Assembly: GCF_000599985.1 (NCBI RefSeq)
Contig: NZ_CP007445.1
Coordinates: 1,178,001-1,242,000 of the forward strand
Source of the DNA: Gilliamella apicola
GTDB taxonomy: Bacteria; Pseudomonadota; Gammaproteobacteria; Enterobacterales; Orbaceae
Direction: 5' to 3'
DNA length: 64,000 nt
Below are positions 10,143 through 55,348 of this stretch, in pieces (position 1 is the first letter of the stretch; each line of letters starts with the position of its first letter). The notes under the pieces were generated by a model. The model was not told the origin of the DNA, did no database searches, and was given only the letters and a program-made list of their open reading frames with translations. Both the position numbers and the translations under genes were made by a program.

Positions 10143-13100
10143 TTATAATTTTAACGCTTGTACGCTTTGTACTAAATCAGCAAGTTGAGTGACAATTTGA
10201 TTACCTGTATTGGATTCATCGCCACCCAGTGTTTTATTTCTAATAAAGTCATTTTTAATTTGTTGCCAACGCTCCGTTTGTTCTTTTGTAAGTACTCCTC
10301 GAATTTCAGCTAGTTTGAGTAGATTTTCTTCTGCGCCGTTAGTTAGCAATTGTGCTTCACCTAGGTAATGATCTTCAATAACTTGATTAAGTTCTTCATC
10401 ATTCATTACTGATGAAATTTTTTCGGTGAGTTTATTCATATTTCGATAACTACCTTGTAACTTGAATGGAGGTTCAGTACGGTATTTATCTGATTGTGCC
10501 GCACTAATGATATATTGTTGATTAACTTTAAATACTACTTCACGAATTTTTAATAAGTGGCGTAGTACTGCAACAATTTCACTAATTTCAGCTTGGCTAT
10601 AATCATAGCTCAATTCATTGGTATTAAGTGGTTTGCCTTGGGCATGATCAATAAGATGATAGAGATCATTAAGGTCACGTAACGCCAAAGGAGAGAGAAT
10701 TGAATTAGAAGTTAGACAGTTTTCAATATAACTTGAAGCAAAAACTTCATCCATTCCACCAAGGACTTCACCTAGGTTATATATGTCAGCACGGTTAGCT
10801 AACATATCGGGTATTTTGAATACCTCACCTGACTCGGTATATGGGTTACCGGCCATTATCACACAGAATTTTTTACCTCTTAAATCATAAGTTTTTGTTT
10901 TACCTTTCCAAACCCCTTCGATGCGACGTGAGCCATCACATAGTGATATAAATTTTTGTAAAAATTCAGGATTAGTATGTTGGATATCATCCACATAAAG
11001 CATAACATTATTACCCATTTCCAATGCTAAATTTAACTTTTCAAGTTCTTGACGTGCTGTTGCATTTGGTGCTTGTTCAGGATCGAAAGATAAAACACTA
11101 TGTCCTAATGCCGGTCCATTAATTTTCATAAAAATCAGGCCTAAACGATTAGCGATATATTCCATTAATGTTGTTTTACCATAACCAGGCGGAGAGATAA
11201 GTAATAATAATCCCATTAAATCGGTTCGTCGACTTTCCCCAACAGTACCCATTTGTTTGGCTAGGTTATCACCAATAATAGGAAGATAAACTTGATTGAT
11301 AAGTTTATTGCGAACAAATGAACTTAACGGTTTTGCTTTGAATTCATCAATGTGCAAAAAGTATCGCTGTTCATCAAGAACTTCTTGACGCAATGTCTGG
11401 TAATGTCGAAATTCAGGAATGATGACTCGTGCATGTTTGCGCATACGACTGAAGAAATCATCAAGGTTGATATTTAATACCCCTTGTTTGATTGTCGGAT
11501 GTTCGCCTAACAAGTCGCTAACCGTGATATCTAGTTCAAGTTCACTAATTTGTATACTTATACTATTTTCTTTGTCTAGCATGCATAGCAAGATTGCTTC
11601 AGGTATGTAGTCAGCTAATTTCTGATATTGAGGTAGAGTACAAAGCCCCTTATACCAACTTTCAATAAGATTCCAGCGATCAGCTAAGCGAGTTTTTAAA
11701 TTAAGTTGCGATTGATTAAAGTCGCCCCACATATGAAGCTCTTCCAATTTGGCTTTTAGTCCTTCATACATGTAAATGCTGTATTTGCTTAAGTTAAACT
11801 CTTGCGGTATTTCAGCCAGCGCATAGCTTAAATATTCAGTCGCTTGTTTGATATGAAAATTATCATGTTTTATTGGATACGTTTGCAAGAATTGATTTAG
11901 CTCTGTAGCCATTTCTGCTTGTAGATTAATTAATCCTTCATCATGACCAAATAGAGCTTGAATATCTTTGCAGGTCTTGGCTCTTTCCGGCCATAATTTT
12001 GCAACATCACTTTTTTGATTATATTGCCAAAATAACATAGCCAAACTACGAGCTAATGGATTGTAACGCAATAAGCCTGCTGCCTCACCTAGTGGAATAA
12101 GTTTTGATAAGATTTTTACCGCGTCGTGATCATGAATACCTTTTTCATAACCTTCTCGATATCGCATGGCTGCATAATCACGAACAGTTTTAACCAAACT
12201 TTCAGGTTGACTTAATTGAGTAACTAATTCTTCATAACTGATATCAAGATCTTTTTTTAATATGGCGTTGATAATAGAATAGGCTAGATATTCACCACGA
12301 TAGACTGTTGGTGACTCTGATTCAAGTGATATAGTCCAGAACGGTTTATAACTCTCTAATTTACTATTCTCTATTTTTTCTTGATAATCTGTACCCGTTA
12401 ATTGCAAATATAAATGTGTTTCTTTTGGAACAATAGTTAGGTCAAGCTCTTGTGTGTTTACGCTGAATTTGTGTTTTGGACCTAATTTTATAACGTTGCC
12501 ACCAGATTCGAATATTTCTGATTTATCTCGTAATGCGCGTATGGCCTGATCACGTGCACTTTTAAAACGTGATTCAATATCATCCGCTTTGACGTTATCA
12601 AACAGATCTCTTAATTTTTCTACAATTTCTCGGATTTTTAATGCTAGTGGATCTGCTACAAAGAAAGCATTAAGTTCATTTTGATCTGAAAATTTAGCTG
12701 TACGTCTAGGTATACTATCTAAAATGCGAACAGCTGCGGTAAGAAGGGCTTCAGTGCGTCTTGTCCGATCTTCAAGTAATGCTTGTTTGTGGGTTTCGAA
12801 AGATTCTAATATTTCTTCGCGTTTCGTCAGTATGTCATTAAGGAACTCTTCACTTTCACTAAATTGATTTTCAAGTTCTTCAAGTTGAACAAGTAGTCTT
12901 GATAGTTCATCGTCGCATTTTTCTGGTGTGGTTGCGATACTTAAAGCACTTGCGATGCTTTGACTAAATAGTTTGAATTGGGCGCCAAATTGGGCAATCA
13001 TTTCGACACTAGATAGATTTTTTCGTTTTTGATTGATCCTTGCTTTGGTTTGGTTTAGTTTGGCATATACTTCGGCAATAGATTCAATAATTCTAGTTTG

Positions 13101-42093: not shown

Positions 42094-42169
42094 GCGGGAA
42101 TAGCTCAGTTGGTAGAGCGCAACCTTGCCAAGGTTGAGGTCGCGAGTTCGAACCTCGTTTCCCGCTCCA
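42094..42169 (+). tRNA. tRNA-Gly (anticodon GCC), integration target
   Basis: A 76-nt cloverleaf with acceptor GCGGGAA/TTTCCCGC, anticodon stem-loop AACCTTGCCAAGGTT (anticodon GCC), T-loop TTCGAAC and encoded CCA (TCCA end). Its last 23 bases are included in the attachment repeat found again at 54143. Confidence 0.95.
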
Positions 42170-42171
42170 AT
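42147..42171 (+). repeat. Attachment site attL: tRNA-Gly 3' end
   Basis: A 25-bp segment from the T-loop TTCGAAC to two bases past the CCA is repeated exactly at 54143-54167. The integrase gene starts 255 bp inside. Confidence 0.9.
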
Positions 42172-42335: not shown

Positions 42336-42425
42336 TTATGTTATTGTGATAATGTATTTTTTGAACAGTTCGTCTAAATATTGACTAGCTATCCTTACGT
42401 TCATCAATAACATAAGGAATTTATC

Positions 42426-43718
42426 ATGGCTGTACTCACTGACTATAAAATTAATGCATCAAAATCTAAAGCAAAGGAATACACTCTCAAAGACGGCAAT
42501 GGGTTATTTCTAAATATTCATCCCAATGGTTCTAAATATTGGCTATTTCGTTTTTCTTGGAATGGTAAACAGACCCGAATGTCGTTTGGCACCTATCCTA
42601 CTGTGGATATTAAGCAAGCCCGCTATTTGTGTGAGCAAGCCAACTTTAAATTGTTAAGCGGCATCGATCCTCGCTTAAAAGAAAATCCTACTATTGATCC
42701 CGTAGATGAAGTGCTTGATGAAGAGCCAAAATGCACTTTTGCTCAATTTGCACAGCATTGGCTTGAGTTTAAAATGAAGAAATTAAACGCAAAACCATCT
42801 AAAGATAAAAAGAATAACGGACGTGGCAGCACCGAAATTCAAATTCGTCGTGCGTTTACCAATGACATTTTTCCAGTCTTAAAAGATAAATCCATACATA
42901 AAGTCACAAGAAACGATTTATTGTGCATTATTCGTAAGGTAGAAAAACGAGGTGCATTATCTGTCGCCGAAAAAATAAGAAGTTGGCTTGATGAAATTTT
43001 TCGTTATGCCGTTGTCACTGAAGGATTAGAAATTAATCCAGCCGCCGATTTGGATATTGCATCCTTACCTTATCGCCGTAACAATCGCTACCCGTTTATC
43101 GACGTTAGTGAACTCCCTGAATTACTTGTTAAATTGTCAACCTACCAAGGCAGTCGTTTAACCATCTTGGGATTACGACTATTATTACTAACGGGAGTCA
43201 GAACAGGTGAGCTTCGTTTTTCTGAAGCCTGGCAATTTGATTTAAAAAATGCGCTGTGGCGTATTCCGGCATCGGATGTCAAACAGTTACAACAAGTTAT
43301 TGAAAAGGTGGATAATCGGGTTCCTGATTATATTGTGCCTTTATCACGTCAAGCGTTGGATATTGTGAAGGAACTCCTGTCTTATCACATGAGAGGACAA
43401 CGATATTTAATCGCTAATCGAACAAATCCTCTTGAGGCCATGAGTGAGAATACACTCAATCAAGCATTAAAAAATATGGGATTTAAACGTCGATTATGTA
43501 CTCACGGAATCAGGCACACTATTTCAACTGCATTAAATGATCTTAAATATGATAAAGATTTTATCGAAGCTCAGTTATCCCATTCTGACACTAACAAGGT
43601 CAGAGCCACTTATAATCATGCTCAATATATTGAGCCTCGCCGTGAAATGATGCAAGAATGGGCTGATTTACTTGATAAATGGGAACAAGAAGTACTAGAT
43701 AAAATAAATAATAAATAA
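42426..43718 (+). CDS. P4-type tyrosine integrase of the tRNA-Gly island
   Basis: The 430-residue recombinase has the N-terminal DUF4102 arm-binding domain ('ALTD...YTLKDGNGLFLNIHPN' pattern, 'YWLFRFSWNGKQTRMSFGTY'), a SAM-like core-binding domain and a catalytic domain. Catalytic residues visible are Arg259 in 'LLLTGVRTGELR', His360 and Arg363 in 'THGIRHTISTAL', the following LSH block and Tyr396 in 'VRATYNHAQY'. It inserts or excises the element at tRNA-Gly. It is intact and has an AAGGA Shine-Dalgarno. A strong terminator follows. Confidence 0.93.
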   Translation: MAVLTDYKINASKSKAKEYTLKDGNGLFLNIHPNGSKYWLFRFSWNGKQTRMSFGTYPTVDIKQARYLCEQANFKLLSGIDPRLKENPTIDPVDEVLDEEPKCTFAQFAQHWLEFKMKKLNAKPSKDKKNNGRGSTEIQIRRAFTNDIFPVLKDKSIHKVTRNDLLCIIRKVEKRGALSVAEKIRSWLDEIFRYAVVTEGLEINPAADLDIASLPYRRNNRYPFIDVSELPELLVKLSTYQGSRLTILGLRLLLLTGVRTGELRFSEAWQFDLKNALWRIPASDVKQLQQVIEKVDNRVPDYIVPLSRQALDIVKELLSYHMRGQRYLIANRTNPLEAMSENTLNQALKNMGFKRRLCTHGIRHTISTALNDLKYDKDFIEAQLSHSDTNKVRATYNHAQYIEPRREMMQEWADLLDKWEQEVLDKINNK

Positions 43719-43730
43719 TTCATTCACAGT

Positions 43731-43755
43731 GGAGCTTTTAGAGCTCCTTTTTTTT
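43731..43755 (+). terminator. Rho-independent terminator after the integrase
   Basis: GGAGCT (43731-43736), loop TTTAG, AGCTCC (43742-43747), then TTTTTTTT. Confidence 0.9.
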
Positions 43756-44176
43756 ATTTCGATCGATAAAACAGATCAATCGTATTTTTATTGATCTGTT
43801 TAAACGATTTCTCTATCACATCATAGTGAGGCTCGAAAATAGGCATTAAATTCTTAAGCCGAAAACGGCCATCGGGTGCATGAAGTAGTAGGGTATTTAA
43901 TTGACCTTTGTCGTCATTGGAAAAAATAAGATGAAGATTATCTACTGTCGTGTGAGAAACTAAATGTTCTAGCCTGGTTTCATTGGTTGAGATCAGCTCA
44001 TAAATACCAGATTTTGCTGTATGGCGTAATTTGTAATAACTCGACAGCGTAGGTTGTATATCTAAATCGATTAATAAAACACTAAGCCCTGCATCAGCCA
44101 TAAAGCCACCAAGATTTGCTGCCACAGTCGTTTTTCCTACTCCACCTTTAGTCGAAATCACTGAGAGTACTTGCAT
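43754..44176 (-). CDS. ParA-family ATPase, C-terminally truncated
   Basis: The first ~118 residues are a normal ParA/Soj start: deviant Walker A 'VISTKGGVGKTTVAANLGGF', 'VLLIDLDIQPTLSSYYKL', then '...MPIFEPHYDVI'. Normal proteins continue with the catalytic 'DTQG/DxPP' strand and another ~150 residues. Here they are replaced by an unrelated 20-residue end (EKSFKQINKNTIDLFYRSK). The gene therefore lost its 3' half by deletion when its end was joined next to the integrase terminator. ParA-AlpA pairs are usual in integrative conjugative elements, so this island may be a shrunken one. It is probably non-functional as a ParA. Confidence 0.75.
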   Translation of the reverse strand: MQVLSVISTKGGVGKTTVAANLGGFMADAGLSVLLIDLDIQPTLSSYYKLRHTAKSGIYELISTNETRLEHLVSHTTVDNLHLIFSNDDKGQLNTLLLHAPDGRFRLKNLMPIFEPHYDVIEKSFKQINKNTIDLFYRSK

Positions 44177-44209
44177 ACCATGTTCCTTATTGTATTTGAG
44201 GATTAAGGG

Positions 44210-44416
44210 TTAATTGACGTTCGCAAGTCGCTCAGCAATCCAATTATCAATTTCCGCTGAATTCCAACCAACAGAACGAACACCGATACGAATCGATGGC
44301 GGGAATTGATTATTTTTGATCAGTTCGTAGATGTGTGATTTTTTATAACCTGTGCGTCTTTCAACTTCGGGCATACGCAAGATAGTGGGATAAGTTTGTT
44401 CGTCATCATTAATCAT
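44210..44416 (-). CDS. AlpA-family excisionase-like regulator
   Basis: This 68-residue winged-helix DNA-binding protein has 'TILRMPEVERRTGYKKSHIY' and 'NNQFPPSIRIGVRSVGWNSA', the AlpA/MerR-like excisionase pattern. The start at 44416 (MINDDEQ) is used because AGGGAG precedes it; the frame upstream to 44470 has no such site. AlpA proteins promote excision or activate integrase and conjugation genes of P4-type islands. It lies 33 bp upstream of the truncated parA in the same direction. Confidence 0.88.
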   Translation of the reverse strand: MINDDEQTYPTILRMPEVERRTGYKKSHIYELIKNNQFPPSIRIGVRSVGWNSAEIDNWIAERLANVN

Positions 44417-44546
44417 GGTCAATACTCCCTGGTCAGTAATGGTACTTAGTCTCAGCGCAAAATAGTCCACATAAGTAGATACTTAAAGCCTAAATACAAA
44501 ATAGTGGATGCTTTTTTATGATAAAGGTCGAAAACAAATCGTGCAT

Positions 44547-44616
44547 TGCCGTTTTTGCATAGCTATGTATTAAATGCATGACTTTGCAAAAAATGCATAG
44601 CTATGCAAAAACGGCA
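44547..44616. promoter_or_regulatory. 21-bp inverted repeat built from GCATAGCTATGC palindromes
   Basis: 44547-44567 and 44596-44616 are perfect inverted repeats (TGCCGTTTTTGCATAGCTATG and complement), with a 28-nt spacer that holds another TGCATG. Each arm contains most or all of the self-complementary core GCATAGCTATGC. Position between alpA and lysR suggests a two-site operator or an origin-like structure. Confidence 0.6.
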
Positions 44617-44806
44617 TCAATCGACTGTTTTTATAAGCGTTAATTTTCAATAGGTTATAAATTAATGTACAAGGATGACGATTATTTTGAGGAATAAGTT
44701 CTTTGCGTTTTTTACATACCAATGCAAAAAACACAAAGAACAGCAAGATCATGTAATTGAGAATATTACTTGTAACTCGATTAAACTGTATTTTTATAAC
44801 ATTCGT

Positions 44807-45694
44807 CTAACTACGGATAAAAAACGTATTAACTAGACTTTCCAAATTCTTGATTTGCTGATGACTGTATCGATTAGGCTGGTAGATAAGATAAGTATCA
44901 ACCAATAAATCAGGTTCAATAGCTCGAGTGGCCACATGTTGGTTTTGCATATTGTCTAACATGCTTTGTGTCACTATACTTATCCCTAAGCCGGCCATCA
45001 CCAGTGCTTGTAACACGCTATAGGATTTCACGAATAATGTTTCAAGTGGGCTAAAAGTAGCTGTATAGATCAACTCATGAAGCAAGGTATTTGGCTGGAA
45101 TGAAATAAAGGGATAATTTTGTATATCATTAAATGTTATGTGTTGTAATGACATTAAAGGATGTTGTTTTGAAAGTAAGATGATTAGTCGCTCCTGCCAT
45201 AATTTTTTAAAAATAAGTGAATCATAGCGATGACTTGCCATGTGTAGCGATAATGCAAAGTGATACCTCCCTTGAGTTAAACCAGATAAAATATCCTGAT
45301 AAGCCGCCTCATGAACATGGAGATGTATATGTGGATATTTTTCATGGTATTGCCGTAATAGCTTAGCCACGCGGTATCCATCTATGTTGGGTGAAATAGC
45401 TAGCTCAATGGTGTAAGACTGCCCTTGTTGTGAAGCTTTAATTCGATGATTAATGCTGTCAATAAGACAAAAAATCTGATTAGTCTCTTGTAAAAGCAGA
45501 CTTCCGTGCTCAGTTAATTTAAGCTGACGCAAATGTCGTTCAAATAAAATCACCCCCAATCGTGATTCTAATCCTTGTATCGCTCGACTTAGCGATGACT
45601 GAACCACATAAAGTTTAGCGGCTGCCTGCCCAAAATTAAGCTCTTGCGCAACTGTTCTAAAATACATCAGTTTTTTTAGATTCATATTTCTCAC
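44807..45694 (-). CDS. LysR-type transcriptional regulator
   Basis: The 295-residue protein has the LysR helix-turn-helix 'LKKLMYFRTVAQELNFGQAA' and 'LYVVQSSLSRAIQGLESRLG', with 'LFERHLRQLKLTEHG'. A two-lobed effector domain follows ('HPLMSLQHITFNDIQNYPFI', 'VMAGLGISIVTQSM'). The true start may be the third Met-containing position (MNLKKL). Its effector is unknown. It faces away from the frameshifted gene at 46039, with a 343-bp AT-rich divergent region (45695-46038) in which I recognise no gene. It could control that gene or the radical SAM operon. Confidence 0.9.
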   Translation of the reverse strand: MRNMNLKKLMYFRTVAQELNFGQAAAKLYVVQSSLSRAIQGLESRLGVILFERHLRQLKLTEHGSLLLQETNQIFCLIDSINHRIKASQQGQSYTIELAISPNIDGYRVAKLLRQYHEKYPHIHLHVHEAAYQDILSGLTQGRYHFALSLHMASHRYDSLIFKKLWQERLIILLSKQHPLMSLQHITFNDIQNYPFISFQPNTLLHELIYTATFSPLETLFVKSYSVLQALVMAGLGISIVTQSMLDNMQNQHVATRAIEPDLLVDTYLIYQPNRYSHQQIKNLESLVNTFFIRS

Positions 45695-46038
45695 CTATAA
45701 TTTTTACATATTTTTTCCTTTAACAAAAACATGATCTTGTCTTAAATAAACTAACATGTTATTCGGCCTATCAGCATGCAAGTTTCATCATTTTTATTGA
45801 GAAATATCGATTTAAAGTTCATAAACCGAACAGATGGTTATCAGATAATAAATAATTTTGGTTAAATTAACTTGAAGGATATATCATTTTTGATGAATGA
45901 AGCTTTACTTTTAAGTATTGAGATTTAATTTCGATAGATCTTAATAAATAAATCATTGTCAAAATTCGATTTTTACACTCTTTTATTAAATAAATTCTCA
46001 ATACTAGTATATAACTTATCTTATACAGAGGAATTTAT

Positions 46039-46781
46039 ATGAGCATTAAACTCCCCATATACAACGGCACCGGCATTTTAGTGATGAAAAAACACACACC
46101 GGTTATTGATGCATTATTTGGGTTATACCTCTTAAAAAAAACACAAAATACAAAAATCACTTTAATATCGCCAAATATTCACAGTATACCTATCCTTCTT
46201 GGCATACAATCATCCGACGTTTACATAAGGTCATCAAAAAGAGCCGCCGCTTTGAACCACTTGATCCTGATACTGTAAATGAACGAGACTATTTAGATGA
46301 TCTTATCTTGCGCATGGATTATGATGAAGCCTTTACTTTAGAACAAGTTTATCATCTGGCCAATGCTGTTGGTGAACTCAATGAAGAGGGAGAAGTCGAA
46401 CTTTACCAACTCTTTCAAATTGCTTTGGCTTTTGATGATGGTCATCAACTACAAATACTAAATTTTAAAAGTTTGTGGTACTACAAAAATGCTATACCTG
46501 CGTATGAATCTGCTGATAATGTTTATGCCACTAAAGATGGGATATTTACTGTAGATATCAATGAGGCAAAAAAATATTCCAAGGCATTGTGTAAAGCATT
46601 AGCCAGTAATGACATTGAAACAGCTTCGAAGCATTTATGTGAATACATTTCAAAGAAACTCTATAAAATTTTTGAAGTAGATCTTAGAGAAAAGCTCATC
46701 AAGCAAGTGGCAAAAGACTTACCTCAACAATCATCAATGATTTTTGAGGCGTTAGATAATAACGAGATAGAACTATATTAG
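46039..46781 (+). pseudogene. Unrecognised ~247-residue protein gene frameshifted at an A8 tract
   Basis: The first frame (46039-46278) reads MSIKLPIYNGTGILVMKKHT through 'DALFGLYLLKK'. At the A8 run 46134-46141 it leaves the coding frame. The other frame continues from there with 'NTKYKNHFNIAKYSQYTYPS', 'WHTIIRRLHKVIKKSRRFEP' and the long helical acidic protein that ends at 46781. One extra A (A9) restores a single frame. I do not recognise the family; the C-terminal part is soluble, helical and acidic. A strong terminator follows. Either a real mutation, slippage-dependent expression or a homopolymer read error explains the break. Confidence 0.6.
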
Positions 46782-46811
46782 ACTTAGTAATTAAAAATAA
46801 AATCAATACAA

Positions 46812-46847
46812 AATGGTAGATAGGAGTTGCAATCTATCATTTTTTAT
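46812..46847 (+). terminator. Rho-independent terminator
   Basis: AATGGTAGAT (46812-46821) pairs with ATCTATCATT (46832-46841, one G-T pair) across a 10-nt loop and is followed by TTTTTA. Confidence 0.8.
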
Positions 46848-47067
46848 ATTTGCTTTTAATGAAGCGAATGCTTGTGGATCACACTTCAGTAGTTATTCTT
46901 GCTACATTGTCACTATTTATGAAAAAATGATGAAGTCTTTATCCTCAAATTTATCCTTGGTTACCATAAATTCCTCGTACAAAATGTACGAAATAAAACA
47001 AATTGGATCAATTTGAACAACACCATGAATAATTAGCGTCTGTTAGATTAAATTCGAGCTACTACAC

Positions 47068-47823
47068 TTAAAATATTCTTTTTAACGTACTTAATGTTTT
47101 TTGAACATTTGGGTAACTCAGCATTGAGAAATGATCTCCACCTCCAGAAAATATTTTAACATTACCATTTACCTGATTACACCATCTTTCTATATTTTTA
47201 TCGGTAAGATCTGATGCTTTTTCTGATTTGATTAAATATACATCAGTAGCTAAATAACCATAATTGATTAGTTCATTATAAAAATATTTATAAGTTGAAT
47301 GTCTTTTCATAATTTTATTATTTAGTACATCTGGATCTAACTTAGAATATTTTTTCAATTTTCTTATAAACCCAACATCAACCAGATAATTATAAAAACC
47401 ATCATTAAACTCCTTTAATTCAATATGATCCATTATTATTTTTTTATCTCGAAGTGGAGCATCTAGAACTATCAGTTTATCAATTTTTATACTGACACTT
47501 TCTAATTTCTTAATAACTTCAAAAGCAATATTAGCTCCTGCTGAATATCCCATAATTGAAATTGATTTATTTTTTGAAAGTTTAAATATGGTATGACAAT
47601 AAATATCAATTAGTTTTTCAGGAAAAATATCTTCATAAAAATCAAAACAATAAAAAGAATAATTTTCAACTCTTCCTATAATGTTTTCATAAACAATCCC
47701 CCAGCCAGATAATGGGGGGAATAGAAAAATTATATTTTTATTATCATCAAAATCTTTAGACTTTATTTCTAAATTTGAACTACTTAAGATAAAATCGAAT
47801 TTATTAATTATGCACATATTCAA
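47068..47823 (-). CDS. NRPS/PKS-type thioesterase (alpha/beta hydrolase)
   Basis: The 251-residue protein has the stand-alone type II thioesterase plan. It shows the oxyanion-region 'IIFLFPPLSGWGIVYENI', the nucleophile elbow 'SIMGYSAGANIAFEV' (Ser94), an acidic residue in 'KLIVLDAPLRD' (Asp121) and the late His in 'FSGGGDHFSMLSYP' (His231). Such enzymes hydrolyse acyl groups from carrier proteins or release products. No carrier protein or NRPS module is in this window, so the substrate could be a free thioester or an ester. It is the last gene of the six-gene minus-strand operon, 28 bp after the DUF5680 gene. Confidence 0.8.
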   Translation of the reverse strand: MNMCIINKFDFILSSSNLEIKSKDFDDNKNIIFLFPPLSGWGIVYENIIGRVENYSFYCFDFYEDIFPEKLIDIYCHTIFKLSKNKSISIMGYSAGANIAFEVIKKLESVSIKIDKLIVLDAPLRDKKIIMDHIELKEFNDGFYNYLVDVGFIRKLKKYSKLDPDVLNNKIMKRHSTYKYFYNELINYGYLATDVYLIKSEKASDLTDKNIERWCNQVNGNVKIFSGGGDHFSMLSYPNVQKTLSTLKRIF

Positions 47824-47851
47824 TATGTTACCTTTATGATGAATTTTTTGT

Positions 47852-48355
47852 TTAAATTACTTTCATTTCTTTATTATATCTACCTCTTATCATTCCCCCT
47901 AAATAGTATCTAAAACATATCTGTTCATTACCTTCCCAAATTTCCTCATGCCCAGTAAATGACATTAAATCACCTAAAGTACAATTTTTGTAGGTATATG
48001 TGCCGTTTTGATAAAGAGTTGGACCTCTAATAGGTAGCTGATTATCTACCTCGTTCAATGCTAATCTTAAAAAGTTGAAAACCTTTTGTTTATTGTCATC
48101 ATATAAGGAAAATATCCCGCCTCTATAGCTCATTCCCCACACAGGGATGCCTTTATACCTAACAATTTCCTGTCCCATATCAACAAACTCGCCGAAGTAA
48201 CGATCTTCATAACTAAATTCATCTTCTTCATATAAATATTTTTTGGAAAAATCACTGGAGCGAATTTTTAATCTATCCCCTCCAGCATAACCATGCAACT
48301 TTGCTTTAAGGAGAAAAGATTTAAATTGATGTAAATATAGCTCGTTAATATCCAT
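47852..48355 (-). CDS. DUF5680-like protein
   Basis: The 167-residue protein shows the DUF5680 pattern 'KLHGYAGGDRLKIRSSDFSK', 'YEDRYFGEFVDMGQEIVRYK', 'GIPVWGMSYRGGIFS' and a C-terminal 'CFRYYLGGMIRG'. The domain often appears alone or after a helix-turn-helix in bacteria and has no known activity; binding of a small ligand is one guess. Here it lies between the thioesterase and the SPL-like radical SAM gene with short spacers (28 and 17 bp), so it is probably part of the same pathway. Confidence 0.7.
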   Translation of the reverse strand: MDINELYLHQFKSFLLKAKLHGYAGGDRLKIRSSDFSKKYLYEEDEFSYEDRYFGEFVDMGQEIVRYKGIPVWGMSYRGGIFSLYDDNKQKVFNFLRLALNEVDNQLPIRGPTLYQNGTYTYKNCTLGDLMSFTGHEEIWEGNEQICFRYYLGGMIRGRYNKEMKVI

Positions 48356-48372
48356 TGTTATTCACCTTCATT

Positions 48373-49203
48373 TTATTTACGATGTTCAATCACATTTCCT
48401 AATCGCAAGTGAAGTCCATATTTATCTAACAAACCTCGAATAAAATCGTCATTTATTTGGATCTTGTTTTTTTTCAAAGATAGATAGGTGCTTGCCAACG
48501 TTTTATCATATGAAACTATTTTTTGTTTTATATAAGGGCTTAAATTTATATGTTCTACATAAACAGATTTAGTACCTGTTTGTGCAACAAGTGAAATAAG
48601 AGATTCTAATTCAGAAGGATTTTGAAGAAGATGGGGTAATATTGGTCCAAGAAATGCATAAGTTCTAATATTATGACTATTCAGTTTATGTAATGCATCT
48701 AATCTGCTCGTTATAGATGGCGCTTTTATCTCTAGTGCTCGGCTTATACGATCCTGAGATGAAGTAATAGTAAAACCTACTTCAACATTTTTTAAACCTT
48801 GCAAAACATCTATATCCCTAAGCACTAAAGCTGACTTTGTGAGTATGCTTATCAAACCAGGGTAATTGGTATTTTTTAATATTTCAAGCATATTCCTCGT
48901 TAGTTGATATTTTTTTTCAAGAGGTAAATATGGATCTGTTACTGAGCTAAAAAATATTGTTGAGCTCGAATTTTTATCTAAAAATTTTTTTAATTGTTTA
49001 TCAAATATCTCTACTGAGTTTTTTTTTATATAAACATAATTCCCCCAGTTTTCGACAGGCTCGCCAATGAATCTCCCCATAAAGCTTGCATAGCAATATA
49101 AACAGGAAAAACTACAACCAATATAGGGATTTACAACATAATCAGTGTCTGGTAATTTAGATTTTATAATAATATTTTTGCAGTCTATTTCATAATATTT
49201 CAT
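48373..49203 (-). CDS. Radical SAM protein, spore photoproduct lyase-like subgroup
   Basis: The 276-residue protein has the radical SAM cluster motif 'NPYIGCSFSCLYCYASFMGR' with Cys30, Cys34 and Cys37 (CX3CX2C). 'STIFFSSVTDPYLPLEKKYQ' and 'TRNMLEILKNT' follow, which place it in the group with spore photoproduct lyase and related small single-domain enzymes. There is no SPASM or B12 domain. The family forms a 5'-deoxyadenosyl radical, but the substrate is unknown. It starts only 4 bp after the MATE gene ends and clusters with another radical SAM gene and a flavin/Fe-S oxidoreductase. Confidence 0.83.
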   Translation of the reverse strand: MKYYEIDCKNIIIKSKLPDTDYVVNPYIGCSFSCLYCYASFMGRFIGEPVENWGNYVYIKKNSVEIFDKQLKKFLDKNSSSTIFFSSVTDPYLPLEKKYQLTRNMLEILKNTNYPGLISILTKSALVLRDIDVLQGLKNVEVGFTITSSQDRISRALEIKAPSITSRLDALHKLNSHNIRTYAFLGPILPHLLQNPSELESLISLVAQTGTKSVYVEHINLSPYIKQKIVSYDKTLASTYLSLKKNKIQINDDFIRGLLDKYGLHLRLGNVIEHRK

Positions 49204-49207
49204 AAAG

Positions 49208-50554
49208 CTATCCTTCTTTATACTTATTTGGTAGGGTTATATTATGAAAATATAACAATGTAATTTTTGATGCTATAATCGCCGCAATAATCAGCGCAAA
49301 CCAAAATCCTTTCACCCCAAACTCACCATCGAAAGTCAAGAAATAACCACCACATAATCCTATTCCCCATAGGCAACTACCTAGAATAAGAGTTGGTATA
49401 AATGTTTTATTAAAACTTCGCAATACGCCACTAACTATTGTATAAATCGCATCAAAAAAATGATAACAAGCAACAAAGCCAATTAATAAGGATGCGACAT
49501 CACATACAATTTGATCAGTTGTATAAAATGAAGCAATCTGTTTTCTTAGCAAAAAAAGCAATAAACTATATATAAAAGCAATTAAAACCCCTGATTTGAT
49601 ACATGAAAACCCTACTTTTTTTGCTAATTGATTTTCTTTTACCAAATAACTCCCCACAATTACTGAAGAGGCACTACCTATTGACAAAGGGATTAGATAA
49701 GAAATGTAAGACACATTCGCAGCGATTTGATGGCTAGCCATTGTAGTCAATCCCAAATTAGCAACCAATAGACCTATAATAGTAAAGGAGCTATAATCTA
49801 CTAAGAAAGTGAGGCCAATTGGGCCTCCAGTTTTTAATAAAAAAAGTTGTGTCTTAGTTGAAATTTTGAACGAAATTGACAATGGGATTTTCTTTTTAAA
49901 AAAGATACAAATAGCTATTATAAGAACTAACCACGACGCACAAACGGTTCCTAATGCGCATCCATTAACTCCCATAGCTGGTATGGAATAGAATCCTAAA
50001 ACAAAAAGATAAGTAAGTACACCTTTGATCGCAAGTCCGATAAAATTTGTAAACATAATTATTTTAGGCTTATAAATTCCTGAGGCATAGGCAAAAATAA
50101 TTTTATAAATTAATAACGCAGGAACACCTATAATTAAAATTGTTAAATATTCATTGACTTTAAAAAATGACTGTTCATCTAGATGACTAATGTTAATCAG
50201 TGGCTCTGCGTTTAATAATATAAAACAAACAATAATCGAAAGTATTATTGCTAACCAGAATCCTTGCGCAGTTAAATTTTTTACATTTTCAAACCCTCCG
50301 TCACTATATTTTTGAGCGTACAGGGGGGGTAATATTAACAAAATTGCAGAAAATCCAATAAAAATAGTAAAAAAAACATTATCCCCAACGCCCACAATAG
50401 CAATGTCAAGAGAAGAGAAATGCCCAACAATTATCAAGTCAATAATGGAATAGCTTGTAACAGCCAATTGGCCTATAAATATAGGCCAAGCCTGATTTAA
50501 TAGTAGCTTTGGTATATTCATCTTATTTTTGTTCATGGAATTAGTGTATGTCAT
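49208..50554 (-). CDS. MATE-family efflux transporter
   Basis: This 448-residue protein has about twelve membrane helices in two halves. Typical MATE stretches include 'LLLNQAWPIFIGQLAVTSYS', 'IDLIIVGHFSSLDIAIVGVG', 'ASGIYKPKIIMFTNFIGLAI' and 'TTMASHQIAANVSYISYLIP'. MATE pumps export cationic or amphipathic small molecules using H+ or Na+. Its start overlaps the preceding oxidoreductase gene by 14 bp (translational coupling), and it ends 4 bp before the SPL-like gene. It is therefore probably the exporter of, or self-protection against, the product of this operon. Confidence 0.9.
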   Translation of the reverse strand: MTYTNSMNKNKMNIPKLLLNQAWPIFIGQLAVTSYSIIDLIIVGHFSSLDIAIVGVGDNVFFTIFIGFSAILLILPPLYAQKYSDGGFENVKNLTAQGFWLAIILSIIVCFILLNAEPLINISHLDEQSFFKVNEYLTILIIGVPALLIYKIIFAYASGIYKPKIIMFTNFIGLAIKGVLTYLFVLGFYSIPAMGVNGCALGTVCASWLVLIIAICIFFKKKIPLSISFKISTKTQLFLLKTGGPIGLTFLVDYSSFTIIGLLVANLGLTTMASHQIAANVSYISYLIPLSIGSASSVIVGSYLVKENQLAKKVGFSCIKSGVLIAFIYSLLLFLLRKQIASFYTTDQIVCDVASLLIGFVACYHFFDAIYTIVSGVLRSFNKTFIPTLILGSCLWGIGLCGGYFLTFDGEFGVKGFWFALIIAAIIASKITLLYFHNITLPNKYKEG

Positions 50555-51734
50555 ATACTAGAGCCTTTGCTGGACATAAATCATGGCACATTGAGCAACC
50601 ATCACAATTTTTATCAAAATTATACGGAATACTTTTAAACGAGTTACAAGTAACCATATTTTCACATATATTACATTTAACGCATTTATCCTCTAATAGT
50701 GTTGTTTTAACTTGTAAAGTTTCTCTACTTTTTATTTTACCAAAGTGTTCTGGATAATGTTCTAAACTGACTCCGATTAAATCAAGTAATGTATTATATT
50801 CATTTTTATCCAAAAATTTATTTAAACTTTCCTTTAACCCATTAATATGTTGAAATCCTTTTTTCATAATTACAGACGTCAAATGAATTGAATTAGCACC
50901 AAGCATCAGACATCTAATTATATCTTGCCATTTATCTAATCCACCACCAGCAGATAAAGATAAATTAGTCTTGGAACGTAAGATTTGTGTATAATTAAAG
51001 GTAAAAGGCAGTAAGGGCTCTCCTGCAACTACACTATTTGATGCTCCAGTTAACGAATCGTATAGATCTCCATCAAAAATGGGTCTTCCTTTGTTAGAAA
51101 TATCAATGTATGGTTGGACATTTATAGAGTCAAGATAAATAAGTCCCCCTACATTACAATTAGTTATAATACCATCAATCAAATCATCATCCATTCTAAT
51201 GTTTAATTTGGGAAATACAGGTATCTTAACTGATCGAGCTAATCGATTTATTATTTCTATCACTCTATAAATGTCCGCATTACACATTTTTTTTAAGTCT
51301 AAGTAAAAAAAATCTATTTGTATCCCATCCGCACCAGCTTTTTCAGCCTCTTTAAAAAGCGATAACCAGATATCAATACTATTTTCTTCAAAAAAATACG
51401 GATAAAAAAGAGATGCAATAATAGGTATATCACACTGACTTTTGGCGTTTTCTATCAACCTCATTCCATAATCCATTGGTAAAATTTCTTTTAAATAAGT
51501 AGATTTTAAATAATTTCCATATCCTCTAATCCATTTATACCTACGTATATCTGTTGGCTTTATTGATTCATTAGAGTTATGCGCACCAATTGATTTTGAA
51601 ATGACCCCTCCAGCATTCTCCTCTTCAGCTCGTTTTATATCGTCGAGATACATAGATGCAGGGCCTGCACCTATTAAAAAAGGATTTTTTAGCTTAATGG
51701 GTCCTAATGAGGTTGATAATCTTTTATCCCACAT
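50541..51734 (-). CDS. Dihydroorotate/dihydropyrimidine dehydrogenase-like flavoprotein with two [4Fe-4S] motifs
   Basis: The 397-residue protein has a DHOD-type TIM barrel ('STSLGPIKLKNPFLIGAGPA', 'KAGADGIQIDFFYLD', 'VKIPVFPKLNIRMDD', 'LSLSAGGGLDKWQDIIRCLM') and a C-terminal ferredoxin domain ('DKCVKCNICENMVTC' and 'KNCDGCSMCHDLCPAKAL'). This matches the layout of PreA, the dihydropyrimidine dehydrogenase subunit (411 residues in E. coli). The active-site stretch NxSCP...MG in PreA is here DFFYLDLKKMCNAD, so the pyrimidine-binding and catalytic Cys features are lost. No PreT partner is present. It probably reduces or oxidises a different substrate of the same pathway. It lies 20 bp after the first radical SAM gene. 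Confidence 0.78.
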   Translation of the reverse strand: MWDKRLSTSLGPIKLKNPFLIGAGPASMYLDDIKRAEEENAGGVISKSIGAHNSNESIKPTDIRRYKWIRGYGNYLKSTYLKEILPMDYGMRLIENAKSQCDIPIIASLFYPYFFEENSIDIWLSLFKEAEKAGADGIQIDFFYLDLKKMCNADIYRVIEIINRLARSVKIPVFPKLNIRMDDDLIDGIITNCNVGGLIYLDSINVQPYIDISNKGRPIFDGDLYDSLTGASNSVVAGEPLLPFTFNYTQILRSKTNLSLSAGGGLDKWQDIIRCLMLGANSIHLTSVIMKKGFQHINGLKESLNKFLDKNEYNTLLDLIGVSLEHYPEHFGKIKSRETLQVKTTLLEDKCVKCNICENMVTCNSFKSIPYNFDKNCDGCSMCHDLCPAKALVYDIH

Positions 51735-51754
51735 ATTATTCCTCCAATTTCATT

Positions 51755-52886
51755 TTATAAGTTATTATAAAGCGGATCAGCTGAATCAAATATTCGTTCA
51801 ATAGGTAAATTTTTTTGCGAATTAAAGAAAGAAAATATTCTACAATGGCCTACATTTTCGTTAACTTTAGATAGCATGATTTTATATTTTTGAGAGTCAA
51901 AGATTTCGGATAATGTCTGATTACTTAAATTTCCCAGCACCCACTCTTCACCTAATGGTTTACCTGATGCGTTATAAGCCCAAGGCGATGCTAGTAATGT
52001 ACCATTGGGGGTAATCCCGAATGAATTAGAAACTAAATCACAAGGATTTTCACCTGGATGTTTATTAAATTGAGGAAAAAGATGTTTCAATGCACATTGT
52101 AGTTTTATCTGTGGTGATCCATATTTAGATTCTTGTTCAAGTAAAACTTCAATTGCTAATTTGTACTGTTCAATAGATGGTATTTTTTCTTTTAACAACA
52201 TTCCCCGACCGACGGGAAATAAACGCATAATTAAAAGTTTATCAATTCCTCTCTCATGTAATTTTTTATATAATCTTACTAGATGAGCTCGATTAATAAT
52301 ATCTGTTGTTAATGGTAACTCGGCCCTAGTGCTACAATTGAGTTTGTGAAACTGCTCTCCTATTTTTAAGTTTCCAATTGCATAAGCATTAGGTCTATTT
52401 GCAACATCATCTATATCTTCAGCATCAAAAGTAAAATTATATTCACCCACGAGTGATGCTAACATTTTTATATCATATTTCGCAATTCCAAGTCCCGTTG
52501 CAGTTAAAGTTACGTTCTCTTTCCCTAATTTATTTGATGCATATTTAAGAAGTTCAATATTTTGTGGGTTAATTAGTGCATCACCACCTGATATATCAAT
52601 TTTTACATTAAAGCCTTCAAGATTATCAATAACTTGTTTTTTTTTGTTCTAAACTCAGTTCCTCTTTATTATTTATTAAAATATTAGTTGCTTTTTCATA
52701 AATATTTTCTTCCTCACTAAGTCGCGGGTAAATTTCTTCTTTAGAAAGAGATTCACTACGAATAATGAGACTATTATTCTTTTTCTTAACATGTAAAGCA
52801 TCAACGCAACATATAGCACAATCCCATGGACAAACTCTAGTAATGTTATAAATAATGTCAATTTTTCTGTTTGATTGATTTTTCAT
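51755..52886 (-). pseudogene. Radical SAM protein, first gene of the cluster, frameshifted at an A9 tract
   Basis: The first frame (52886-52626) reads MKNQSNRKIDIIYNITRVCP and 'WDCAICCVDALHVKKKN', with cluster cysteines Cys19, Cys23 and Cys26 (CX3CX2C). It ends shortly after the minus-strand A9 run (52637-52645). With eight As the frame continues 'QVIDNLEGFNVKIDISGGDA', 'LINPQNIELLKYASNKLGKE', and on through 51755 to 'NPCDLVSNSFGITPNGTLLA' and 'EEWVLGNLSNQTLSEIFDSQ', a SPASM-like C-terminus with few cysteines. The restored protein is about 377 residues. Everything except one base is intact, so it is recently broken, slippage-expressed or misread. The start at 52886 has a GGAGC Shine-Dalgarno. 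Confidence 0.75.
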
Positions 52887-53183
52887 ATAAACTAAGCTCC
52901 ATTATATTACTGTTAAGATAAATATTAATAAGTCGACACTAAAAATACCCATTGTTTTTGTAAGGATATTTTTATTGTATAAAGAAAATATGCAAATTTC
53001 AATACATGGTACTGTTAAATTATTTTTATATTAAATTTGGCCTATAAATCATTAATTTTGAATTTTAGGTGCAAACGGATTGCTGAGTTTATAAAGGAGA
53101 TTATTTAAATCTTGAGGCCATATTATTCATAAATATAGACAAAATAGTTAACATCATTCCAGCTATTTAGATACTGTTAGATG
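52887..53183. other. Probable promoter region of the radical SAM operon
   Basis: This AT-rich region lies upstream of the six-gene operon. Two tiny minus-strand frames (MGIFSVDLLIFILTVI, and a 14-codon frame overlapping the radical SAM start) were examined as possible peptide precursors. Neither has conserved-looking core residues. I see no other gene. Confidence 0.4.
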
Positions 53184-53390
53184 TTAAAAGACTAAAAGAG
53201 CTTGAAGATGAAAATTTTAAACTTAAAAAGTTGTTTGCGGAGTCAGCCTCGAAAACCATGCCATGAAGGAGAATTTCGTAAAAAAGGGTTAGTGATGGCC
53301 GAAAAAAAATTGTGTGCATATTCGCTTATTCAAGCGGGTTTATCGGTCATAAAAGCGTGCAAATTAGCCTCGCTATCGTGGGCAACCTGA
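53184..53390 (+). mobile_element. IS3-family transposase remnant inside the island edge
   Basis: The frame LKELEDENFKLKKLFAESAS (53187-53266) matches the leucine-zipper end of an IS3-type OrfA. After a stop and a shift, AEKKLCAYSLIQAGLSVIKA with 'CKLASLSWATWR' (53298-53390) resembles the start of OrfB. Both are truncated and no terminal repeats are evident. Confidence 0.6.
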
Positions 53391-53557
53391 CGGTTATCTA
53401 TCGTGACTGTAGAAGAGCCTTCAATCACCGAGCTTGTGTGATATCCATCGTGTTCACTGCCTACAAATCACGAACTAAAATGACCCTTGGCATATAATTA
53501 TCCTTAAATCTGTTTTAAAGAAAAGTCGACATCATCATCGGCTTTAAGCTATCTGGC

Positions 53558-53750
53558 TTACCGGCTAATAACAAACTCTTTGCCGTCAAAACGGAATTTG
53601 GGGGCCAGTGTATTGCACTTATCAATATCGAAATTTCTCCCCTTGTGCTCTGGCGGACAAAAGAGCAAAGGTGAGGACTCTATTTGCACCAATTTATCAT
53701 CTAAAGATAGCTTGATTTGTCTATTGGTAAAATTTGAAAGTTTTTCTTGA
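53558..53750 (-). pseudogene. C-terminal fragment of an unrecognised protein
   Basis: A minus-strand frame without a start reads 'DDKLVQIESSPLLFCPPEHK', 'GRNFDIDKCNTLAPKFRFDG' and KEFVISR, ending at 53558. It looks like a real C-terminus, perhaps of a mobile-element protein, but no family is recognised. The rest of 53391-54012 shows no gene. Confidence 0.35.
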
Positions 53751-54012
53751 AATGATATTACTTTCCGAAATCAAGATAAAATTATTTGTAATGAGAAAAA
53801 TAGTGATATCATCAAAATGATGATTTTGTTGACATAATTAAGTTTAAAATTTATTAAATCGATTTTTATCTTAATTTGAGTTTATCTGCGGATAGTGGAT
53901 TTCGACCTGATTATATTTTATTCAAGATGTTAATAAATAGCTTGTATTATAATAAATTAATATTCTAAAATGTATAAGTAAGGATTAGTAAAAAAGTGGT
54001 TTTTGTACTTTG

Positions 54013-54080
54013 AGTCCGTAGAAGTCCATAAACATCCATTAAGAACCGCTAAGAACTAGTCCAAAAAATAGTCCAAAAGG
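54013..54080 (+). repeat. Right arm-type integrase repeats (AGTCC family)
   Basis: AGTCCGTAGAAGTCCA (54013-54028) and the paired AGTCCAAAAAA/AGTCCAAAAG units at 54058 and 54070 mirror the set just inside attL and end 62 bp before attR. Confidence 0.65.
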
Positions 54081-54142
54081 TTAGCAAAAGCAATATTGGT
54101 GTCTGGATAATTCTTTTATATACAACAGGTTATAAAGCTGGA

Positions 54143-54167
54143 TTCGAACCTCGTTTCCCGCTCCAAT
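54143..54167 (+). repeat. Attachment site attR: copy of the tRNA-Gly 3' end
   Basis: The 25 bp are identical to 42147-42171, from the T-loop TTCGAAC to two bases past the CCA. The preceding bases differ and no other tRNA part is present, so this is the far end of the ~12-kb element. Confidence 0.9.
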
Positions 54168-54299
54168 TACTAATCTATAGAATCTTATAATTGTATAGAT
54201 TAATAATAATTATGGTATAGCAACCTCACCTTTTCAGAAAAATATAATAATCCTAGCTAAAAAAGTAGACTGATGTTGTCTTTATAATATGATTAAACA

Positions 54300-54883: not shown

Positions 54884-55348
54884 ATGACTACAATTATTAA
54901 CTCTAAAAATCCCGCAACTATAGAAGACATTTCCAATTTTGAGAAAATTATTAGTGGTAATTTGCCAAGTGATTATAAAGATTTTTTAATGAAATATAAT
55001 GGGGGACAACCTCAGCCAAATACATTTGGATTTTTTTCTGATAGAAATGATGAATCTATGGTAGATCAATTTCTTAGTTTAGGCAGAGAAAAACATAGCA
55101 ATTTATTAAGTTATTACGAGAATTATAAGGACAGAATTCCTTCTGATTTCATACCCATAGCTCACGATGCTGGCGGTAATCTTATTATAATGGAATTGAA
55201 ATCTAATAGTAATAGAATTTATTTTTGGGATCATGAGTTAGAAGCAGATGAAGATGAAGGTGAAATACCTAATATGGATAATGTCTATTATATTAATCAA
55301 TCTTTTACCAAGTTTATAAATGATCTTTATCTCTTTGAGGAAAAATAA
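54884..55348 (+). CDS. SMI1/KNR4-family immunity protein
   Basis: The 154-residue protein has the SMI1/KNR4 (SUKH) pattern: 'DISNFEKIISGNLPSDYKDF', 'LMKYNGGQPQPNTFGFF', 'PSDFIPIAHDAGGNLIIMEL', 'NRIYFWDHELEADEDEGE' and 'VYYINQSFTKFINDLYLFEE'. SUKH proteins are common immunity proteins against Rhs/CDI and other polymorphic toxins. It is intact. About 200 bp of its 3' end is duplicated at 62174. It is the first gene after the degraded IS, on the plus strand like all the following modules. The cognate toxin is not in the window. Confidence 0.9.
   Translation: MTTIINSKNPATIEDISNFEKIISGNLPSDYKDFLMKYNGGQPQPNTFGFFSDRNDESMVDQFLSLGREKHSNLLSYYENYKDRIPSDFIPIAHDAGGNLIIMELKSNSNRIYFWDHELEADEDEGEIPNMDNVYYINQSFTKFINDLYLFEEK

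What the first reader, a model, noticed from the sequence alone, without database searches (positions are those of the whole stretch)
47068..52886. Uncharacterised radical SAM / DPD-like / MATE / thioesterase operon on a mobile island
Six minus-strand genes with gaps of 20, -14, 4, 17 and 28 bp encode a radical SAM protein with a SPASM-like C-terminus, a DHOD/PreA-like flavoprotein with two [4Fe-4S] motifs, a MATE pump, an SPL-like radical SAM enzyme, a DUF5680 protein and a type II thioesterase. Two radical enzymes, a redox partner, an exporter and a hydrolase form a plausible small-molecule pathway. I know of no described pathway with this set. SPL (thymine dimer repair) and PreA (uracil/thymine reduction) are both pyrimidine-related families, so a pyrimidine- or peptide-derived product is a speculative possibility. 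No peptide precursor, NRPS module or carrier protein is visible.
Basis: partly seen in the sequence, partly recalled or inferred. Interest (0 to 1): 0.88.

Follow-up and report, generated by a model that had tools for sequence, protein, structure and literature searches.

The report
Mobile paired radical-SAM flavoenzyme operon
A relative of bee-gut bacteria carries, on a small jumping island shared almost letter for letter with a bumble-bee symbiont, six genes that look like an assembly line for an unknown exported molecule, and its three core enzymes also sit together in some unrelated bacteria.

Summary
The six genes, their order and gaps are real, but the first radical SAM (rSAM) gene is interrupted here by a homopolymer frameshift; an intact copy exists elsewhere. 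The operon is cargo of a 12-kb island between 25-bp repeats of a tRNA-Gly 3' end, with integrase and AlpA. Candidatus Schmidhempelia bombi (another genus) has the cargo at 99.94% identity at the same tRNA; 2 of 44 family genomes have its flavoprotein gene. Burkholderia ubonensis has all six in the same order (28-54% identity), plus a BacD-like ATP-grasp protein, the thioesterase being fused behind an adenylation domain. The trio SPASM-type rSAM, PairB/PA0069-like rSAM and DHOD-like flavoprotein recurs with another membrane protein in 9 of 9 testable distant loci (Clostridia, Treponema, one unnamed bacterium), in 0 of 5 PreA controls. The flavoprotein keeps FMN and Fe-S residues but has lost the pyrimidine-site residues and catalytic Cys of dihydropyrimidine dehydrogenase, so the pyrimidine idea is weak. 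Best reading: a mobile pathway for an exported, probably amino-acid-derived molecule; product and steps unknown. Rivals: anti-phage cassette, RiPP maturation, or decay in this strain.

The parts
42094..42169 (+). tRNA-Gly(gcc), integration site of the island
   Evidence: ARAGORN
42147..42171 (+). left 25-bp repeat (3' end of tRNA-Gly), att-like
   Evidence: 25/25 identical to 54143-54167; in the cut-off list the latter (G000:C1:1232143-1232167) is seen again as a match to the tRNA end alone
42426..43718 (+). tyrosine integrase with Arm-DNA-bind_3 domain
   Evidence: Pfam PF13356, PF22022, PF00589
43754..44176 (-). short ParA-like ATPase, 140 aa
   Evidence: PF13614
44210..44470 (-). AlpA-type regulator
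   Evidence: PF05930
44807..45694 (-). LysR-type regulator in the island
   Evidence: PF03466, PF00126; missing from the Schmidhempelia copy
47068..47823 (-). stand-alone thioesterase, 251 aa, GYSAG and GDHF motifs (read by eye)
   Evidence: PF00975 43.9 bits; 28% identical to the TE domain of the B. ubonensis adenylation-TE protein
47852..48355 (-). DUF5680 protein, 167 aa
   Evidence: PF18931 86.5 bits; 44% to B. ubonensis
48373..49203 (-). second rSAM enzyme, PairB/PA0069-like, CxxxCxxC
   Evidence: PF04055 44.6 bits; TIGR04470 154.2 bits, cut-off 410; 50% to B. ubonensis; alignment A5
49208..50554 (-). MATE exporter, 448 aa
   Evidence: TIGR00797 231 bits, cut-off 147.4; 35% to B. ubonensis
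50541..51734 (-). DHOD/PreA-like flavoprotein with two C-terminal [4Fe-4S] motifs and QxDFFY motif
51755..52648 (-). C-terminal piece of the first rSAM (SPASM) gene; frame open from 52648, first start codon in it at 52465
52626..52886 (-). N-terminal piece of the first rSAM gene with CxxxCxxC, ends at the frameshift
   Evidence: homologue intact in L002:4839-5969
54143..54167 (+). right 25-bp repeat, att-like end of the island

Best explanation
A mobile biosynthetic operon for a small exported molecule. Shown: it is island cargo, nearly identical in two genera of one family; the six genes recur in the same order in B. ubonensis; the core is SPASM-type rSAM + PairB/PA0069-like rSAM + a DHOD-like FMN/Fe-S-type protein, with a membrane protein in each locus that holds the trio (window, L002, L004 and nine distant loci). 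Inferred: the two rSAM enzymes make successive radical changes to an amino-acid-derived or similar small substrate; the flavoprotein either reduces or oxidises an intermediate or feeds electrons to the rSAM clusters; the thioesterase releases or trims an acyl intermediate; the MATE pump exports the product and protects the cell. In B. ubonensis an adenylation-thioesterase protein and a BacD-like ligase would add an amino acid; the window version lacks both and would make the core product only. The role of DUF5680 is open.
For: Same six-gene order in B. ubonensis. Trio in 9 of 9 testable distant loci, 0 of 5 PreA controls. MATE here; in the distant loci a hydrophobic protein, multi-pass by eye, without Pfam family in the three tested and not matched by the MATE query. 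5 of 19 close DHOD relatives sit on contigs whose length equals that of a listed rSAM hit (the latter listing 120 of 292; same contig is an inference). Carboxylate-activating and releasing domains in the Burkholderia version. rSAM model (pLDDT 91.5) resembles SPASM/twitch enzymes such as anSME, SkfB, SuiB, PqqE, BlsE.
Against: No product, substrate or expression data. Besides the Schmidhempelia copy only one other complete six-gene locus was found. Thioesterase similarity is only 28%. The distant cassettes lack DUF5680, thioesterase and MATE at E 1e-5. PairB-like proteins also occur without the DHOD-like gene (L029, L031). Some distant cassettes lie beside restriction-type genes and the second rSAM matches two candidate defence models, which fits a defence role too. 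The first gene is broken in this strain.
Confidence: 0.58

Rival explanations
1. Anti-phage or anti-element cassette: the radical enzymes make a modified nucleotide (viperin-like logic) or other internal effector; the island is a defence island.
For: Island with integrase and AlpA at a tRNA. Of nine flanking proteins from five distant loci given to PADLOC, three hit: a Type IIG restriction enzyme (L011, 1191 bits), an HKD+Snf2 protein (L013, 417 bits) and a WYL-like regulator (L006, 46 bits); homologues of that regulator lie divergently upstream in L007, L008, L014 and weakly in L012. The window's second rSAM matches the candidate models PDC-M30B (E 3e-9, 34.8 bits) and PDC-M41B (E 1.4e-8). 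Viperins are among the rSAM model's structural neighbours.
Against: Six of the nine flanking proteins hit nothing in PADLOC, and STAND matches in L007 are below cut-off. Exporter, thioesterase, adenylation protein and ATP-grasp in the close relatives. pVip models score only 15.8 bits (intact rSAM copy) and 24 bits (L006 rSAM); the window's DHOD, DUF5680 and thioesterase, L006's second rSAM and membrane protein and L005's DHOD hit no defence model. The PDC matches may only reflect the shared rSAM core (inference).
Confidence: 0.15
2. RiPP pathway: the SPASM rSAM matures a small peptide encoded nearby.
For: The best matches of the rSAM model are mostly protein- or peptide-modifying SPASM enzymes.
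Against: No gap in the operon can hold a gene; small ORFs within 450 nt upstream of rSAM in 11 loci show no similarity between loci at E 0.1 except within the related pair L006/L008 and one weak match L007/L014; the model starts its barrel at residue 8, so no N-terminal peptide-recognition domain; no peptidase among the operon's Pfam families over cut-off.
Confidence: 0.12
3. A passenger in decay: in this genome the operon no longer works. Not exclusive of the other readings.
For: First gene frameshifted (stops inside the match); adenylation domain and ligase absent beside it; no ligase match in the genome at E 1 (no positive control).
Against: Five of six genes intact; no other indel in 7.8 kb against Schmidhempelia; clean short gaps; a homopolymer error of the assembly, or slippage of RNA polymerase at the run (recalled from endosymbiont work), would leave the gene working.
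Confidence: 0.35
4. Pyrimidine- or nucleobase-related pathway.
For: Sequence kinship of the flavoprotein to DPD/PreA and a sub-cut-off SPL match of the second rSAM.
Against: The three DPD asparagines that hold the base and the catalytic Cys (roles recalled) are replaced; PreA model 117 bits against 335, SPL 28 against 400; no PreT, kinase or nucleoside gene in the operon.
Confidence: 0.05

Closest known systems
Radical SAM mobile pair A/B (NCBIfam TIGR04470 and partner; Bacteroidales plasmid pMMCAT)
   Same: A PairB-like rSAM next to another rSAM on a mobile element
   Different: Window protein 154 bits, cut-off 410; partner rSAM matches other models; the plasmid pair has an MBL hydrolase, and L029 shows no match to the rSAM, membrane or DHOD queries
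Dihydropyrimidine dehydrogenase / PreA
   Same: FMN-barrel kin with conserved Lys and Glu, C-terminal two-cluster part
   Different: Pyrimidine-site residues and catalytic Cys replaced by QxDFFY; other side of a supported branch; other neighbours
BacD alanine-anticapsin ligase (bacilysin)
   Same: The ATP-grasp protein of the Burkholderia version matches BacD structures, E 5e-11
   Different: No such gene in the window operon
Spore photoproduct lyase
   Same: rSAM core with CxxxCxxC
   Different: 28 bits against a cut-off of 400
4'-thiothymidine cluster thmA-C of Photorhabdus (PMC12691670)
   Same: A small rSAM cluster with scattered occurrence in gammaproteobacteria
   Different: rSAM + nucleoside kinase + NTPase, a different set (abstract and passages seen; sequences not compared)

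Membership tests
DPD / PreA | Score above NCBIfam NF006183 cut-off (335 bits) | tested here: not met
   117 bits
DPD / PreA | Catalytic Cys671 and base-binding Asn609, Asn668, Asn736 (roles recalled) | tested here: not met
   Tyr144, Leu81, Asp141, Asp202 in the window (my count on the printed alignment)
DPD / PreA | FMN Lys574 and two C-terminal [4Fe-4S] motifs | tested here: met
   Lys47 and eight Cys invariant in the 20 sequences of A1
Spore photoproduct lyase | TIGR04070 cut-off 400 bits | tested here: not met
   28 bits
Radical SAM mobile pair B | TIGR04470 cut-off 410 bits | tested here: not met
   154.2 bits window; 238-308 bits in L005, L011, L013
SPASM-type radical SAM | CxxxCxxC and SPASM domain | tested here: met
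   PF13186 25.3 bits, cut-off 21.5, in the C piece; motif in the N piece and in the intact copy
Viperin (pVip) | Match to PADLOC pVip models | tested here: inconclusive
   15.8 bits, E 0.0018 for the intact copy; no cut-off given
RiPP cluster | Precursor peptide gene next to the maturase | tested here: inconclusive
   None conserved across lineages within 450 nt upstream in 11 loci; elsewhere not searched
MATE exporter | TIGR00797 cut-off 147.4 bits | tested here: met
   231.1 bits
tRNA-integrating genomic island | Integrase beside tRNA and direct repeat of the tRNA 3' end at the far side | tested here: met
DUF5680 | PF18931 cut-off 25 bits | tested here: met
   86.5 bits; fold search gave no match that stands out

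The most novel reading that the evidence does not exclude
The QxDFFY flavoproteins with their two linked radical SAM enzymes are a new three-enzyme radical-flavin module, spread over at least three phyla and often on mobile DNA, whose flavoprotein has swapped pyrimidine chemistry for a new reaction on a radical product; each lineage attaches its own exporter and finishing enzymes, and bee symbionts trade the genes as a competition factor.
Probability: 0.35. Interest if true: 0.85.

Novelty: new variant of a known kind. Interest (0 to 1): 0.62.

Why it matters
Paired radical SAM enzymes with a dedicated flavin/Fe-S partner would point to chemistry not yet described, and the conserved motif gives a handle to find all such clusters. 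The near-identical island in two genera, one of them a bumble-bee symbiont, also suggests recent trade of a likely metabolite pathway, which can be tested with and without the island.

Tried and rejected

More relatives sought: viral contigs with three profiles gave no confirmed relative; plasmids with the rSAM (E 1e-20) and the L005 DHOD (E 1e-20), phages with the L010 DHOD (E 1e-20) and E. coli genomes with the DNA no match. The window DHOD against plasmids matched 72 records, all under 60% identity; the 20 listed are at 23-25% and mostly annotated preA. L006's PairB-like protein matched 27 plasmid and 2 phage records; in the two of these that I searched with the other cassette proteins (L029, L031) only it matched. 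rSAM profile: 1 of 394 order genomes and 1 of 398 phylum genomes, the own genome each time; Schmidhempelia was not among the hits of these samples. PDB by sequence: none for the rSAM profile or the second rSAM.

Literature: ten searches over open-licence PMC only. Outline, abstract and passages of PMC12691670 and passages of PMC10673953 (12 of 18 places) were seen; the other papers only in search listings. None that I saw describes this gene set; 'radical SAM mobile pair' is in 0 papers.

Neisseriaceae MAG contig L003 holds only window 48363-51343 (99.93%) between a tRNA-Leu behind a secG-like gene and a peptidase-like gene (names by eye). It may be a chimeric contig and is not counted as an independent occurrence. 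L009 (3.7 kb) reaches only 546 nt upstream and was dropped from the 9 of 9. Seven of the nine distant loci are one Ruminococcus-like lineage, so about three lineages. They were fetched by DHOD motifs, so the motif itself is not independent evidence; the neighbours are. The five PreA controls were picked by hand from the 20 listed rows; four are annotated preA, one record has no annotation. By identity alone the distant DHODs are no closer to the window (24-28%) than PreA is (23-25%); L005's protein scores 114 bits with the L002 copy and 122 with B. ubonensis, but 44-58 with PreA.

In the DHOD tree I had put P0020 in the cassette group by mistake; it lacks the motif and falls on the PreA side, so the group table of that call is not used; the 18 rows with the motif lie on one side of a branch with 97/90 support, with long branches flagged. 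L014's DHOD, split in two frames, was left out of that tree.
Full report
What is there. The window is 64 kb of a single-contig 3.14-Mb genome. The genus is unnamed; 34 further members of it and 9 other genomes of the family were searched. One of the latter, G041, is Candidatus Schmidhempelia bombi: its contig C117 has the length and match place of NZ_AWGA01000065.1. So the window is from the same family, probably Gilliamella (inference, recalled). The first is broken: an N piece with CxxxCxxC and a C piece with the SPASM domain are in different frames, parted at a run of nine T.

The island. The tRNA-Gly at 42094-42169 is followed by an integrase with an Arm-DNA-bind_3 domain, a short ParA-like gene, AlpA and LysR genes. 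The last 25 bp of the tRNA-Gly region recur at 54143-54167; random sequence would give such a pair in a few windows per million (my rough estimate). In Schmidhempelia window 46336-54168 is 99.94% identical (four substitutions and one indel in 7833 bp) and lies beside its own tRNA pair; the stretch with the tRNAs and the island's left end is 95.9% identical; window 42398-46335, with the integrase, is missing there. So this is not plain contamination but recent sharing of one island, later cut down in one host (inference). All five differences fall in 51810-52905, the rSAM gene and its upstream region. The DHOD-like gene is in 2 of 44 genomes of the family.

The same set elsewhere. Burkholderia ubonensis LMG 20358 (L004) has rSAM, DHOD-like, MATE, second rSAM, ATP-grasp, DUF5680 and an adenylation-thioesterase protein in this order on one strand. 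Identities to the window set: rSAM 54 (against the intact L002 copy), DHOD 47, MATE 35, second rSAM 50, DUF5680 44, thioesterase 28%. Between adenylation and thioesterase domains there is a carrier-like stretch with a DSL motif read by eye; Pfam reports no PP-binding domain there at E 0.01. The ATP-grasp is nearest to BacD among solved structures. A hand-read specificity code of the adenylation domain (DVRHFALLAK, positions recalled from PheA, alignment) names no substrate with confidence. Close relatives of the adenylation-thioesterase protein are rare among the 120 of 665 hits seen: a B. ubonensis cluster (96%), one at 42% over 92% of the length, then about 30-36% over most of the length, with matches to about half the length up to 41%. 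Names in the protein searches also include Yersinia intermedia for both DHOD and rSAM.

The deeper core. Ten further loci found by the DHOD profile (24-28% identity) come from Clostridia, Ruminococcus, Oscillospiraceae, Treponema and a 'Bacterium 1XD21-70'. With the window proteins (and the intact L002 rSAM) as queries, 9 of the 9 that reach far enough upstream have the rSAM (25-27%) and the PairB/PA0069-like rSAM (36-45%) on the same strand just before the DHOD. Between the two rSAM genes sits a hydrophobic protein without a Pfam family in the three tested, related across all nine. Five PreA loci with a DHOD match of similar strength have neither rSAM (0 of 5). The two-cluster tail is present in L005 and, degenerate in one motif, in L011; no such motif was seen in the Ruminococcus-like ones, and L014's DHOD is itself split.

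The flavoprotein. In 20 close sequences Q139, D141, F142, F143, Y144 and D202 are invariant, with K47, E83 and eight cluster cysteines. Against pig DPD these positions are E666, N668, L669, S670, C671 and N736, with K574 and E611 kept and N609 replaced by Leu in the window. So cofactor sites stay while the base site and the proton donor go (roles recalled). The 18 rows with the motif lie on one side of a supported branch in the tree.

How it may work. See the best explanation: what is shown is gene content, linkage, mobility and residue loss; the chemistry is inferred. A 4963-aa open frame with four adenylation-type matches elsewhere in the genome means a possible partner for a stand-alone thioesterase exists in trans, but nothing links them. 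The defence reading stays open: three of nine flanking proteins of distant cassettes hit defence models, L005 has an integrase nearby, and the second rSAM of the window matches two candidate defence models; on that account its odds are 0.15. The exporter and the activating domains of the close relatives speak for a secreted product.

Verdict. A real, mobile, conserved operon that I did not find described; the pyrimidine idea is weak; product unknown; this strain's copy may be off. Novelty: a new variant of the known kind 'mobile biosynthetic cluster', with a core that could prove more than that.

Noticed in passing
G000:C1:1737078-1750178 (outside the window): A 4963-aa open frame with four adenylation-type matches: a large NRPS in the same genome.
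   Followed up: no
window 51810-52905: All five differences from the Schmidhempelia copy lie in the rSAM gene and just upstream; the other 6.7 kb are identical.
   Followed up: partly
L002 around 11384-11388 (window 42393-42397 and 46336-46340): In Schmidhempelia 3.9 kb with the integrase is missing; the two matched blocks overlap by 5 bp at the breakpoint.
   Followed up: partly
L003:10050-13030: A 2981-bp piece of the operon inside a Neisseriaceae MAG contig, perhaps a chimeric assembly.
   Followed up: partly
G031:C1:2359933-2359960: In a congener a 28-bp repeat of the tRNA-Gly end lies 5.4 kb from a tRNA pair: the site may be a hot spot for islands.
   Followed up: no
window 54884-55348: SMI1/KNR4 (SUKH) immunity-like gene at the start of a run of small plus-strand genes beyond the island.
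   Followed up: no
L029:6339-7879 and L030 (Bacteroides plasmids): Radical SAM mobile pair A/B with an MBL hydrolase and AraC regulators on plasmids of gut Bacteroidales; the pair's name is in 0 papers.
   Followed up: partly
L006, L007, L008, L014 upstream of rSAM: A divergent WYL-like regulator is conserved before these cassettes; L011 has a sub-cut-off WYL match too.
   Followed up: partly
window 53196-53770: Short frames without Pfam match, perhaps remnants of an insertion sequence.
   Followed up: no
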